From positions 124,001 through 188,000 of the forward strand of contig NZ_LWBU01000017.1 in NCBI RefSeq assembly GCF_001646665.1: 64,000 nucleotides of DNA. Direction: 5' to 3'. Each line of letters begins with the position of its first letter. Position 1 is the first letter of the stretch. Below, in pieces: positions 26,309 through 29,826 of this stretch. This DNA is from Streptomyces noursei (lineage in GTDB: Bacteria; Actinomycetota; Actinomycetes; Streptomycetales; Streptomycetaceae). A model generated the notes under the pieces. It was not told where the DNA came from and made no database searches. It worked only from the letters and a program-made list of their open reading frames with translations. The position numbers and the translations under genes were made by a program.

Positions 26309-26989
26309 TCAGGGCTCGAACTTGTAGCCGAGGCCGCGGACGGTGACCAGGTACCTGGGGGCGCCCGGGTCCGGCTCGATCTTGGCGCGCAGGCGCTTGA
26401 CGTGGACGTCGAGCGTCTTGGTGTCGCCGACGTAGTCCGCGCCCCACACCCGGTCGATCAGCTGCATCCGGGTCAGCACCCGGCCGGCGTTGCGCAGCAG
26501 CATCTCCAGCAGGTCGAACTCCTTCAGCGGCAGGTCGACCTTGCCGCCCGCGACGGTCACCACGTGACGGTCGACGTCCATCCGGACCGGCCCGGCCTCC
26601 AGGGCCGCCGGGGCGACCTCCTCCGGCTCGCCGCGGCGCCGCAGCACCGCGCGGATCCGGGCGACCAGCTCGCGGGACGAGAAGGGCTTCGTGACGTAGT
26701 CGTCCGCTCCTATCTCCAGGCCGACGACCTTGTCGATCTCGCTGTCCTTGGCGGTCACCATGATGACCGGGACGTTCGACCGGCCGCGCAGCTGGCGGCA
26801 GACCTCGGTGCCGGGCAGGCCGGGCAGCATGAGGTCGAGCAGGACGAGGTCGGCGCCGTTGCGCTCGAACTCATCCAGCCCCTCGGGCCCGGTGGTCGCC
26901 ACGGCGACCTCGAAGCCTTCCTTGCGGAGCATGTAGGACAGGGCGTCGCTGAAGGATTCCTCATCCTCGACGACGAGCACTCGGGTCAC
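26309..26989 (-). CDS. phoP: Phosphate response regulator PhoP
   Basis: 226-aa OmpR-class regulator. Receiver: acidic EDEE, phospho-acceptor Asp in LVLLDLMLPG, Thr in IMVTAKD, Lys in YVTKPFSSRE. The winged-helix domain ends LDVHVKRLRAKIEPDPG and VRGLGYKFEP. It is the Streptomyces master regulator of phosphate starvation, which also represses antibiotic production. GTG 26989 overlaps the phoR stop by 4 nt. Identity rests on the phoR-phoP/phoU layout and the PHO box at 28286. Confidence 0.95.
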   Translation of the reverse strand: MTRVLVVEDEESFSDALSYMLRKEGFEVAVATTGPEGLDEFERNGADLVLLDLMLPGLPGTEVCRQLRGRSNVPVIMVTAKDSEIDKVVGLEIGADDYVTKPFSSRELVARIRAVLRRRGEPEEVAPAALEAGPVRMDVDRHVVTVAGGKVDLPLKEFDLLEMLLRNAGRVLTRMQLIDRVWGADYVGDTKTLDVHVKRLRAKIEPDPGAPRYLVTVRGLGYKFEP

Positions 26990-28212
26990 GGAAGGACCTC
27001 CGGGGCTGTGAGCGGTTCGGTGGTGGTGTGGTCGTGGTGGGACCGCGTGGCGCGGTCCCGGCCGGCGCCGGCCTCGGGGAGGCGGAGGGTGAAGGTGGAG
27101 CCCTGACCCTCGGTGCTCCACACGGTGACCTCCCCGCCGTGCGAGGCGGCCACGTGCTTGACGATGGCGAGGCCCAGTCCCGTGCCGCCGGTGGCGCGGG
27201 AGCGGGCGGGGTCGACGCGGTAGAAGCGCTCGAAGATGCGCTCCTTGTCCTTGTCGGGGATGCCGATGCCCTGGTCGGTGACGGCGATCTCTATCAGGTC
27301 GCCGCCGGGCGCGGTGACGCGGCGGGCGGCGATGCCGACGCGGGTGTGGGCCGGGGAGTAGTTGACGGCGTTCTCGACGAGGTTGCCGAGGGCGGCGGCG
27401 AGCTGGCCGCGGTGGCCCCAGACGTGCAGGTCGGCGGTGCCGCCCGCGGCCATGGTGATCTGCTTGGTGGAGGCGGGCTGCCGGGAGCGGTCGATGGCCT
27501 CGGCGACCAGTTCGTCCACCCGGACGGGCTCGGCGTCCTCCAGCGGGTCGTCGTTCTGGACGCGGGAGAGGTCGATGAGCTCCTGCACGAGGTTGGTGAG
27601 GCGGGTGGCCTCTATCTGCATGCGCCCGGCGAAGCGCATGACCGCCTCGGGGTCGTCGGAGGCGTCCATGACAGCCTCGGAGAGCAGGGAGAGGGCGCCG
27701 ACCGGGGTCTTGAGCTCGTGGCTGACGTTGGCGACGAAGTCGCGGCGTACGGCTTCGATGCGGCGGGCCTCGGTGAGGTCCTCGACCAGGAGCAGGACGA
27801 GGCGGGAGCCGAGGGGGGCGACGCGGGCGGAGACGGCGAGGGCCTCGCCGCGTCCGGTGCCGCGGCGGGGGAGGTCCAGCTCCACCTGGCGTATCTCGCC
27901 GTCGCGGCGGGTGTCGCGGGCCATGTGGAGCATCGGCTCGACGGCGAGCTTGCCGCCGCGGACGAGCCCGAGGGCGTACGCCGCCGAGCTGGCCTTGACG
28001 ACGGAGTCGCTCTCGTCGAGGACGACCGCGGAGGAGCGCAGCACGGACAGGACCGTGTCCACGCCGGGCGGCAGCACCGCGTCGGTGTGCAGGGAGGTCC
28101 TGGTGGGTCTGGCCTGGTCGCGCTCGCTCCAGCGGAACGCCAGCATGGCGATCACGCCGGTGCACGCCCCGGCGATCGCGGCCACTGCGGCGACCGCCGC
28201 GTTCACGTCCAT
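26986..28212 (-). CDS. phoR: Phosphate sensor kinase PhoR
   Basis: 408-aa histidine kinase. One N-terminal membrane segment (AAVAAVAAIAGACTGVIAML), a PAS-like region, HisKA with the phospho-His in FVANVSHELKTPVGAL, and HATPase motifs DQGIGIPDKDKERIFERFY and GTGLGLAIVKH. There is no large extracellular sensor, as expected for PhoR, which is controlled through PhoU and the Pst system. The transcript is probably leaderless from TAACCT. Confidence 0.95.
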   Translation of the reverse strand: MDVNAAVAAVAAIAGACTGVIAMLAFRWSERDQARPTRTSLHTDAVLPPGVDTVLSVLRSSAVVLDESDSVVKASSAAYALGLVRGGKLAVEPMLHMARDTRRDGEIRQVELDLPRRGTGRGEALAVSARVAPLGSRLVLLLVEDLTEARRIEAVRRDFVANVSHELKTPVGALSLLSEAVMDASDDPEAVMRFAGRMQIEATRLTNLVQELIDLSRVQNDDPLEDAEPVRVDELVAEAIDRSRQPASTKQITMAAGGTADLHVWGHRGQLAAALGNLVENAVNYSPAHTRVGIAARRVTAPGGDLIEIAVTDQGIGIPDKDKERIFERFYRVDPARSRATGGTGLGLAIVKHVAASHGGEVTVWSTEGQGSTFTLRLPEAGAGRDRATRSHHDHTTTEPLTAPEVLP

Positions 28213-28218
28213 GCGTCC

Positions 28219-28224
28219 AGGTTA
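28219..28224 (-). promoter_or_regulatory. -10 element, leaderless phoRP
   Basis: TAACCT on the minus strand, 6 nt before ATG 28212; the PHO box lies about 65 bp further upstream. Confidence 0.5.
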
Positions 28225-28285
28225 TGCGGGTGCTCGGACACTCTCCCAGCCGTCGGGGGGCGACCTCGGACAGTCGTCGCCCAGA

Positions 28286-28318
28286 GTTCACCGAGGGGAA
28301 AGTGACGGTTCACTTGTG
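28286..28318. promoter_or_regulatory. PHO box (PhoP-binding direct repeats)
   Basis: Three 11-bp units: GTTCACCGAGG, GGAAAGTGACG, GTTCACTTGTG. The first and third keep the GTTCAC core of the Streptomyces PhoP direct-repeat unit and are spaced exactly 22 bp. It is placed between divergent phoRP and phoU, so it can autoregulate both. Confidence 0.88.
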
Positions 28319-28413
28319 AGGGAGGCCCCGGACTTTTTGGACTCCGACCGTGGGAGCGTGGGGGTCCGAGGCCCCACCGGACCCCTGTTGGGCGTAGTGA
28401 GAGAGGGACATCC

Positions 28414-29094
28414 ATGCGGGACGCGTACCACGAGGAACTGGACTCGATCGGCGAGAGTCTGGTCGAGATGGCCCGGCTGGTCGGGTCGGCCGTCGGGCGC
28501 GCCACCACGGCGATGCTCGACGCGGATCTGAAGCTGGCGGAGGCCGTGATCGCCGCCGACCAGAAGGTCGACGACCTCCAGCACGAACTGGAGGCCAGGG
28601 CCATAGCCCTGCTGGCGCGCCAGCAGCCCGTCGCGACGGACCTGCGGATCGTGGTGACCTCGCTGCGGATGAGCGCGGACCTGGAGCGCTCCGGCGACCT
28701 GGCGCAGCACGTGGCCAAGCTGGCGCGGCTGCGGTTCCCGGACGCGGCGGTGCCGCGGGACCTGCACGCCACGATCCTGGAGATGGGCCAGCTGGCGCAG
28801 CGTCTGATGGCGAAGGCGGCGGAGGTCATCATCACCAAGGACGTCGACCTGGCGCTCCAGCTGGAGCACGACGACGACGAGATGGACCGGCTGCACCGGA
28901 CGCTGTTCCAGCACCTGATGGACGACCGCTGGAAGCACGGCATCGAGACGGCGGTCGACGTCACCCTGCTGGGCCGCTACTACGAGCGTTTCGCCGACCA
29001 CGCGGTGTCGGTCGCCAAGCGGGTGGTCTACCTGGTCACGGGCGAGCACGCCGACGAGCTCCAGCAGTCGGAGGCTCCGGTCGAGGGCGCGTAG
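28414..29094 (+). CDS. phoU: Phosphate signalling protein PhoU
   Basis: 226-aa all-helical PhoU with the two tandem three-helix bundles. The conserved metal-site motifs appear as DLRIVVTSLRMSADLERSGDLA (residues about 75-96) and ETAVDVTLLGRYYERFADHAV (about 180-200). It signals phosphate sufficiency from the Pst importer to PhoR. GAGAGGGA provides the ribosome-binding site. Divergent from phoRP across the PHO box. Confidence 0.95.
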   Translation: MRDAYHEELDSIGESLVEMARLVGSAVGRATTAMLDADLKLAEAVIAADQKVDDLQHELEARAIALLARQQPVATDLRIVVTSLRMSADLERSGDLAQHVAKLARLRFPDAAVPRDLHATILEMGQLAQRLMAKAAEVIITKDVDLALQLEHDDDEMDRLHRTLFQHLMDDRWKHGIETAVDVTLLGRYYERFADHAVSVAKRVVYLVTGEHADELQQSEAPVEGA

Positions 29095-29237
29095 GGGGTG
29101 GCCCGGGGGGTGCGGGCGCAGGGCGCGCCGGCGGGGGTTCGCACATCTGTGCGCCGTTGATGCGCCTTGGCGGCTGGGCATGCAATGGGGAGAGGCGACG
29201 TACGCCTTGGAACGTACGGCCTTCGAGGAGGGACCCC

Positions 29238-29387
29238 ATGGCAGACACGCCCATGACCGACCCCGAGCAGGAAGTATCCGTCGAAGTGCTCCGCCTGCCC
29301 GTGCTGGGTGCCTGCGGCTGCGGCTCGGGCTGCGGCTGCGGGTGCCAGTCGGGCGCACCGTGCCAGTGCGGCGGCTGCTGCGGCTGA
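29238..29387 (+). CDS. Cys-rich small peptide, metallothionein- or RiPP-like
   Basis: 49-aa peptide. An acidic 23-residue N-terminal half (DTPMTDPEQEVSVEVLRLPV) is followed by a tail with nine cysteines in CGCGSGCGCGCQSG and PCQCGGCCG spacing, mostly C-x-C and C-x-x-C. It may bind metal ions like a metallothionein; the split leader/core shape also resembles a ribosomally made peptide precursor, but no modification enzyme is adjacent. GAGGAGGGA is a strong ribosome-binding site, making translation likely. Confidence 0.78.
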   Translation: MADTPMTDPEQEVSVEVLRLPVLGACGCGSGCGCGCQSGAPCQCGGCCG

Positions 29388-29589
29388 CCGGCCGGGCGTT
29401 CCCGGCAGGGCCCCGTCCGTGCCCCGGGCGGGGCCCTTTCCCGTGCGCTCGGGCGGGGTGCGGGAAGCCCGGTCCGGTTGTTACCGGTGAGGACCCGTTG
29501 ACATGGGTGGGCGGCCGGAGAAACGTGGCCCTCGGACGCCGCATCGTCCGTCCCGCAGGTGAAGACGGATCGAGGAGGCTGAGCGTCAG

Positions 29590-29826
29590 ATGACTTCGAC
29601 CAGAAAGCGCGTGGGCGCGGCGATCGCCACGGTGGCCGCTTCCTTCGCCCTCGGGCTCGGTGGCGCGAGCATCGCCGAGGCGAAGATCCAGCCGGTGGAC
29701 GTCTCCTGTGAGAACCGGGGCGGCCAGGAGCCCGGCGGCCAGCAGCCGTCGTGCAAGGGCGGCGGCCTGGTGCAGGAGAGCGAGAACCAGAACCCGTCGG
29801 GCCACGCACCGCCCGGACAGAACTGA
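29590..29826 (+). CDS. Small secreted protein
   Basis: 78-aa precursor with a clear Sec signal (IATVAASFALGLGGASIAEA, cleavage before K32) and a 47-residue mature part rich in Gly, Gln, Asn and Pro with two cysteines (VSCENR and PSCKGG), perhaps one disulfide. GAGGCTGAG lies upstream of ATG 29590. No family recognised. The 200-bp gap before it shows GC-rich hairpin-forming sequence only. Confidence 0.72.
   Translation: MTSTRKRVGAAIATVAASFALGLGGASIAEAKIQPVDVSCENRGGQEPGGQQPSCKGGGLVQESENQNPSGHAPPGQN

What the first reader, a model, noticed from the sequence alone, without database searches (positions are those of the whole stretch)
29238..29387. 49-aa peptide with a nine-cysteine tail downstream of phoU
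The clean division into an acidic Cys-free front and a tail consisting almost only of Cys, Gly, Ser and Gln is unusual. It could be a bacterial metallothionein or a ribosomally synthesised peptide whose maturation genes are elsewhere. A strong ribosome-binding site argues that it is made.
Basis: partly seen in the sequence, partly recalled or inferred. Interest (0 to 1): 0.52.

Follow-up and report, generated by a model that had tools for sequence, protein, structure and literature searches.

The report
Known Streptomyces metallothionein-like peptide, MtpA
The small cysteine-packed protein is real and strongly conserved, and it is very probably the gene already called mtpA, a predicted metal-binding peptide of Streptomyces.

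Summary
The 49-aa ORF at 29238-29387 is real and its Cys core is under strong purifying selection. It lies downstream of phoU in 125 of 145 related loci and has a match in 101 of 101 Streptomyces genomes, some marginal. By position and description it is mtpA (SCO4227), listed as a metallothionein in print and transcribed mainly from its own promoter in one strain.

New here: a 19-residue core (CxC-x3-CxCxC-x5-CxC) without a Pfam or NCBIfam model; a nearly gene-specific promoter element with an 11-bp direct repeat; and relatives elsewhere: behind cydAB in 15 of 20 loci of a Nocardiopsis/Thermobifida-type family, and, in a Streptomyces, within a metal island of ZnuA, ABC-3, FUR-family, CobW and Nramp genes. 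The RiPP reading is weak: none of 38 neighbour proteins scanned is a maturation enzyme, and MNIO enzymes are in 3 of 20 peptide carriers outside Streptomyces. Best reading: a cytosolic thiolate metal buffer, metal unknown.

The parts
29238..29387 (+). mtpA-like ORF, 49 aa, nine-Cys tail
   Evidence: translation; homologs; selection
29313..29369 (+). 19-codon conserved core CGCGSGCGCGCQSGAPCQC
   Evidence: found without insertion or deletion in 145 of 145 loci (loci were picked by a looser Cys pattern)
29225..29232 (+). Shine-Dalgarno sequence GAGGAGGG
   Evidence: relatives have such sites too, but my start choice favoured them
29150..29166 (+). conserved promoter element, first half: TGCGCCGTTGATGCGCC (TGCGCC repeated 11 bp apart, flanking a TTGATG -35-like hexamer at 29157-29162)
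   Evidence: the only exact site in the genome
29176..29189 (+). conserved promoter element, second half: GGGCATGCAATGGG (TGCAAT at 29181-29186 lies 18 nt after the TTGATG)
   Evidence: fixed spacing in 60 non-redundant sites
29391..29437 (+). two GC-rich hairpins after the stop codon; possible transcription end, T-run short
   Evidence: -41.5 kcal/mol, z -2.07; 8 of 200 shuffles fold as well; the terminator scan found none
28414..29094 (+). phoU, conserved upstream neighbour
   Evidence: Pfam PhoU; same strand, upstream in 125 of 145 loci
26986..28212 (-). phoR-like sensor kinase, divergent from phoU
   Evidence: HisKA and HATPase_c; the name phoR is by position
26309..26989 (-). phoP-like response regulator
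   Evidence: Response_reg and Trans_reg_C; the name phoP is by position

Best explanation
This is the window strain's mtpA: a small peptide without a signal sequence, whose conserved Cys core most likely wraps a few soft metal ions (Cu+ and/or Zn2+), so that it works as a metallothionein-type metal buffer, made from its own conserved promoter downstream of phoU and regulated with phosphate and redox state. Shown here: a real, selected coding frame, genus-wide conservation, a conserved promoter element, the gene contexts. Shown in print (as read in passages): annotation, transcription mainly from its own promoter, response to stress conditions. Inferred: metal binding, which metal, buffering, and that the variable acidic front is a solubility or stability tail rather than a leader.
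For: Matches in 101 of 101 Streptomyces genomes at E<=0.01, some marginal, and in 187 of 200 genomes of the family at E<=0.001. Seven core Cys are invariant in both alignments (14 and 18 rows). Core pN/pS 0.175 against 0.68 in the front. SCO4227 next to phoU SCO4228 is listed as 'Metallothionein protein (mtpA)' (PMC2267785), and mtpA is called metallothionein-encoding (PMC3282765). RNA-seq suggested that mtpA is expressed mainly from its own promoter, with read-through from phoU (PMC11019849). Metal context of a paralog: L114 lies in an island with ZnuA-, ABC-3- and FUR-family genes upstream and CobW and Nramp genes downstream, and a His-rich ORF between. 0 of 41 Streptomyces genomes have a member of the standard bacterial metallothionein family PF02069; the control genome Synechococcus elongatus does. 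Cys-only chemistry with CxC spacing resembles fungal Cu-thioneins (recall).
Against: I found no metal-binding measurement. The mtpA promoter in Streptomyces WAC07094 rose with magnesium but not with manganese or zinc, which is not classic metallothionein induction; copper is not mentioned in the passages seen. Loss of mtpA, as part of the four-gene mtpA-phoU-phoRP deletion, did not change the Mg effect on antibiotic production. SCO4227 falls to 0.14-fold under oxidative stress, the opposite of a simple protective response. No match to any metallothionein model. The FUR-family proteins of L114 and L117 score better against Fur than against Zur models and below every NCBIfam cut-off, so 'zinc' rests on the ZnuA/ABC-3 and CobW/Nramp neighbours. 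I could not align the peptide with the S. coelicolor SCO4227 sequence itself; identity rests on position and description.
Confidence: 0.75

Rival explanations
1. A thiol redox buffer or sensor: the Cys tail reacts with oxidants or disulfides and protects, or signals to, the phosphate system; metal binding is incidental.
For: Published idea that PhoU and the mtpA product sense or resist oxidative stress (PMC7866108); SCO4227 responds to oxidative stress through HbpS-SenS-SenR (PMC4991794). In relatives the gene follows cydAB, a respiratory oxidase.
Against: A dense CxC core with invariant spacing fits a metal cluster better than a reactive pair (inference); expression falls rather than rises under the stress; one paralog sits in a metal island.
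Confidence: 0.13
2. RiPP precursor: the acidic front is a leader and the Cys tail a core modified by unlinked enzymes, for example of the MNIO type.
For: Leader/core-like division; a PF05114 enzyme is in 30 of 31 Streptomyces genomes.
Against: The front is the least conserved part and varies from 3 to 46 residues in phoU-linked copies and 11 to 14 in the second family. None of 38 neighbour proteins scanned is a maturation enzyme. PF05114 is in 3 of 20 peptide carriers of the second family, and in 46 of the other 100 genomes of that sample if searches drew the same 120 (not fully listed).
Confidence: 0.06
3. A Cys-codon leader ORF that controls a downstream gene through cysteine-dependent translation, the peptide itself being irrelevant.
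For: Cys-rich short ORFs that act this way are known in mycobacteria (recall).
Against: Gly and Gln positions are conserved along with Cys, with synonymous change; the core is kept beside phoU, cydAB, metal-uptake and cupin genes; the window's downstream 78-aa gene was found in 4 of 73 loci of about 1.5 kb each side, the window's own copy included.
Confidence: 0.03
4. A spurious ORF born of GGC/TGC-rich DNA.
For: The tail is built largely of GGC and TGC codons.
Against: Purifying selection fits this frame best, with genus-wide presence, a ribosome-binding site and a conserved promoter element.
Confidence: 0.01

Closest known systems
mtpA / SCO4227 of Streptomyces (phoU-mtpA locus)
   Same: Position directly downstream of phoU, small metal-binding or metallothionein product as described, own promoter
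   Different: No difference found; the SCO4227 sequence itself was not aligned
Bacterial metallothioneins SmtA/BmtA (Pfam PF02069 Metallothio_Pro)
   Same: Small, Cys-rich, proposed metal buffer
   Different: No profile match and no PF02069 member in 41 Streptomyces genomes; no His in the window peptide (SmtA has His by recall)
MymT of Mycobacterium tuberculosis (Cu+ metallothionein)
   Same: Short actinobacterial Cys-rich peptide (recall)
   Different: Different Cys spacing by recall; not compared by a call
Fungal copper metallothionein type (Neurospora)
   Same: Mostly Cys, Gly and Ser, CxC runs, no His or aromatics (recall)
   Different: No detectable homology: the profile search of PDB sequences gave only one chance-level hit to another protein, E 0.052

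Membership tests
mtpA (Streptomyces) | gene directly downstream of phoU, same strand | tested here: met
   window; 125 of 145 loci
mtpA (Streptomyces) | small Cys-rich product | tested here: met
mtpA (Streptomyces) | own promoter | tested here: inconclusive
   conserved promoter-like element, not called by the simple scan; transcription reported in another strain
mtpA (Streptomyces) | sequence identity to SCO4227 | not tested
   no named S. coelicolor record was reached
Metallothioneins in the broad sense | short, Cys-rich with CxC motifs, few or no aromatics | tested here: met
   9 Cys of 49, none of F, W, Y, H; 5 of 145 relatives have a His or Tyr in the tail
Metallothioneins in the broad sense | binds metal in thiolate clusters | not testable with these tools
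   needs purified peptide
Metallothioneins in the broad sense | induced by the metal it binds | not testable with these tools
   print: reporter raised by Mg, not by Zn or Mn
PF02069 bacterial metallothionein (SmtA/BmtA) | match to the family profile | tested here: not met
   E up to 10; 18 members, E up to 0.1
RiPP precursor | linked maturation or export genes | tested here: not met
   0 of 38 neighbour proteins scanned
RiPP precursor | conserved leader recognised by an enzyme | tested here: not met
   front variable in sequence and length
RiPP precursor | phyletic co-occurrence with an MNIO enzyme | tested here: not met
   30 of 31 Streptomyces have one, but only 3 of 20 carriers of the second family

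The most novel reading that the evidence does not exclude
MtpA founds an unregistered actinobacterial metallothionein family with one constant core, moved intact between phosphate (phoU), respiratory oxidase (cydAB) and metal-uptake (ZnuA/ABC-3/FUR/CobW/Nramp) loci. In Streptomycetaceae it is driven by a nearly private, near-invariant operator with an 11-bp direct repeat, so that a metal store is tied to phosphate and respiratory state by a regulator not yet named.
Probability: 0.4. Interest if true: 0.55.

Novelty: already known. Interest (0 to 1): 0.3.

Why it matters
The gene itself is named in print. What would matter is the link: a Streptomyces-wide, probably metal-binding peptide beside the phosphate regulator that affects antibiotic production, with a dedicated conserved promoter element. 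If metal binding is shown, it would join phosphate starvation, metal buffering and redox state in these producers, and it would give curators a family model that the Pfam and NCBIfam copies searched here lack.

Tried and rejected
RiPP with an unlinked MNIO enzyme: tested by co-occurrence, not supported outside Streptomyces; within Streptomyces both are near-universal, so it cannot be excluded there. Standard bacterial metallothionein: no profile match, 0 of 41 genomes. RNA element upstream: no Rfam match in 28200-29700. Sigma-70 consensus promoter and standard terminator: none by the simple scan. Classic PHO box at the mtpA promoter: no exact GTTCACC there; the nearest is at 28286 in the phoR-phoU gap. 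Print disagrees: one paper says that mtpA rises in low phosphate independently of PhoP, another that SCO4227 is regulated by PhoRP. Structure prediction was not run: a metal-free model of such a peptide would mean little.

Limits. The phylum search (12 of 396, all in the window's genus) scored only 18 candidates per genome, so its misses are weak. Loci are partly redundant (137 distinct peptides in 145). With up to two mismatches the promoter half-site is no commoner in the window's genome than the reversed control (15 against 26), so only exact sites carry weight. Start codons of relatives were chosen partly by ribosome-binding site. In one locus (L030) phoU lies on the opposite strand, and L017 shows none within its flank. 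The MNIO neighbourhood (L204) was fetched but not read. Ghorbel 2006 and the PHO-box paper (PMC2275107) were not held, and Darbon 2012 was not looked up; I know all three only as citations. PMC7244524, PMC4433243 and PMC4415409 gave only reference-list hits and PMC4186839 no hit.

Full report
Observation. The ORF is as described: 29238-29387, 49 aa, nine Cys in the last 24 residues, a strong ribosome-binding site, 143 nt after the phoU stop. Among 821 stop-to-stop frames of 30 or more codons in the window it has the densest Cys stretch. The window is Streptomyces DNA by its homologs: the best named locus is S. lavendofoliae JCM 4391 (96% identity). The surroundings are ordinary: a CarD protein, a response regulator and a histidine kinase (phoP/phoR by position), PhoU, a histidine-phosphatase-family protein, an MFS transporter and a YbjN protein.

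Conservation. With the peptide as query, 101 of 101 genomes of the genus (the window's own included) had a match at E<=0.01 (the weakest, such as G018 at 0.0086, are marginal), 187 of 200 in the family at E<=0.001, and 40 of 296 in the class (27 of the same genus, 12 of one other family called f17, and 1 weak match, 5e-4, in a third family). With alignment A2, 20 of 120 genomes of f17 matched. Named loci with the same kind of peptide and neighbours are Thermobifida fusca, Streptomonospora alba and Nocardiopsis sinuspersici, so f17 is taken to be their family (inference). In 145 loci (137 distinct peptides) the 19-residue core is always present without insertion or deletion. Pooled pairwise pN/pS is 0.175 in the core and 0.68 in the first 24 codons of 55 equal-length sequences. 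The front ranges from 3 to 46 residues in the 125 phoU-linked copies and from 11 to 14 in 20 f17 copies. Of the 125, 61 have eight Cys, 38 seven and 26 nine, as the window has. Neither Pfam nor NCBIfam has a model that hits the window peptide at E up to 10 or any of 18 family members at E up to 0.1.

Identity. In 125 of 145 loci phoU lies upstream on the same strand, 94-448 nt away. In S. coelicolor SCO4227 is the gene next to phoU (SCO4228) and is listed as metallothionein protein mtpA (PMC2267785, passage). PMC3282765 (passages) calls mtpA metallothionein-encoding and says, citing others, that it is up in low phosphate independently of PhoP. PMC4991794 (passages) counts SCO4227 as PhoRP-regulated and finds it down to 0.14-fold under oxidative stress, dependent on HbpS-SenS-SenR. 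PMC7866108 (passages) suggests that PhoU and the mtpA product may sense or resist oxidative stress. PMC11019849 (passages) reports transcription mainly from an own mtpA promoter, a rise with Mg but not with Mn or Zn, and no role of mtpA in saquayamycin localisation. None of these passages reports metal binding, and the listings of searches showed no such paper; those listings were capped, and most subscription papers are not held. The finding is therefore, very probably, a known and named gene.

Promoter. An alignment of 44 upstream regions and an ungapped anchored profile of 60 non-redundant sites give TGCGCCGTTGAYGCGCC-N9-GGGCATGCAATGGG. The first half is exact in 106 of 145 loci and within three mismatches in 124. 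The window's copy is the only exact one in its genome. In 41 genus genomes the exact half-site occurs in 31, with 33 sites; in each of those 31 genomes one site lies 53-134 nt upstream of the matched start of the peptide, two sites lie elsewhere, and the reversed control pattern gave 2 sites. Ten of the 41 genomes lack an exact site. The TGCGCC repeats are 11 bp apart and flank a TTGAYG hexamer 18 nt from TGCAAT, which is how an OmpR/PhoB-type regulator might sit on a -35 box (inference). The element was not found within three mismatches in the cydAB-, FUR- and cupin-linked loci tested.

Other contexts. In f17 the peptide gene follows cydAB-type genes (Pfam PF01654, PF02322 in L118, L105 and L109) in 15 of 20 loci by tblastn, one of them by a short hit, and is followed by an unassigned 115-120 aa protein in 16 of 20 (no Pfam or NCBIfam match). 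Some loci without cydAB have a methyltransferase/spermidine-synthase-like gene instead (L071). Some Streptomyces carry further copies. L114 lies in a metal island: ZnuA-like, ABC-3 and FUR-family genes upstream, a His-rich ORF, then the peptide, then CobW and Nramp genes. L117 also follows a FUR-family gene. L122 and L131 follow a cupin gene. The FUR proteins cannot be called Zur: they score better against Fur models and below all cut-offs. Where another copy in the genome of a phoU-less locus was fetched it lay beside phoU, 3 of 3 (L201, L202, L203); in one genome the fetched pair was a FUR-linked and a cupin-linked copy, its two further copies not fetched. A peptide that keeps its core while changing company, with a metal island among its hosts, fits a stand-alone metal-binding role.

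RiPP test. None of 38 neighbour proteins scanned is a known maturation enzyme. MNIO enzymes are in 30 of 31 Streptomyces but in 3 of 20 peptide carriers of f17; 49 of 120 genomes of that family have one, so 46 of the other 100 if both searches drew the same genomes. Related genomes are not independent, so this is a pattern, not a test with odds. It does not exclude other enzymes in Streptomyces but removes the reason to assume one.

Verdict. Known gene mtpA; a metallothionein-like buffer is the best reading (0.75); the metal is not known. Cys-only chemistry leans to Cu+ (recall), the ZnuA/CobW/Nramp context leans to Zn2+ or a similar ion, and the published reporter result (no rise with Zn or Mn) counts against simple zinc induction.

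Noticed in passing
29590-29826 (+): 78-aa ORF with a signal-peptide-like start and a Gly/Gln/Pro-rich end; no Pfam or NCBIfam match; found near the peptide gene in 4 of 73 loci, the window's own included.
   Followed up: partly
L118:4331-4678 and L111:4284-4643 (+): Unassigned 115-120 aa protein with a Cys-rich end, directly downstream of the peptide in 16 of 20 f17 loci.
   Followed up: partly
L114:3495-3800 (-): His-rich ORF between a FUR-family gene and the Cys-rich peptide gene in a metal island; a longer version with repeated units in L117.
   Followed up: partly
G000:C91:185639-186433: PF05114 (MNIO) gene, present in 30 of 31 Streptomyces genomes; its substrate was not looked for.
   Followed up: no
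whole window: GTTCACC, the core of the PHO-box unit (recall), occurs 22 times against 6.1 expected from shuffles; codon use may explain it.
   Followed up: no
L030: phoU lies on the strand opposite to the peptide gene, unlike the 125 other linked loci: perhaps a local rearrangement.
   Followed up: no
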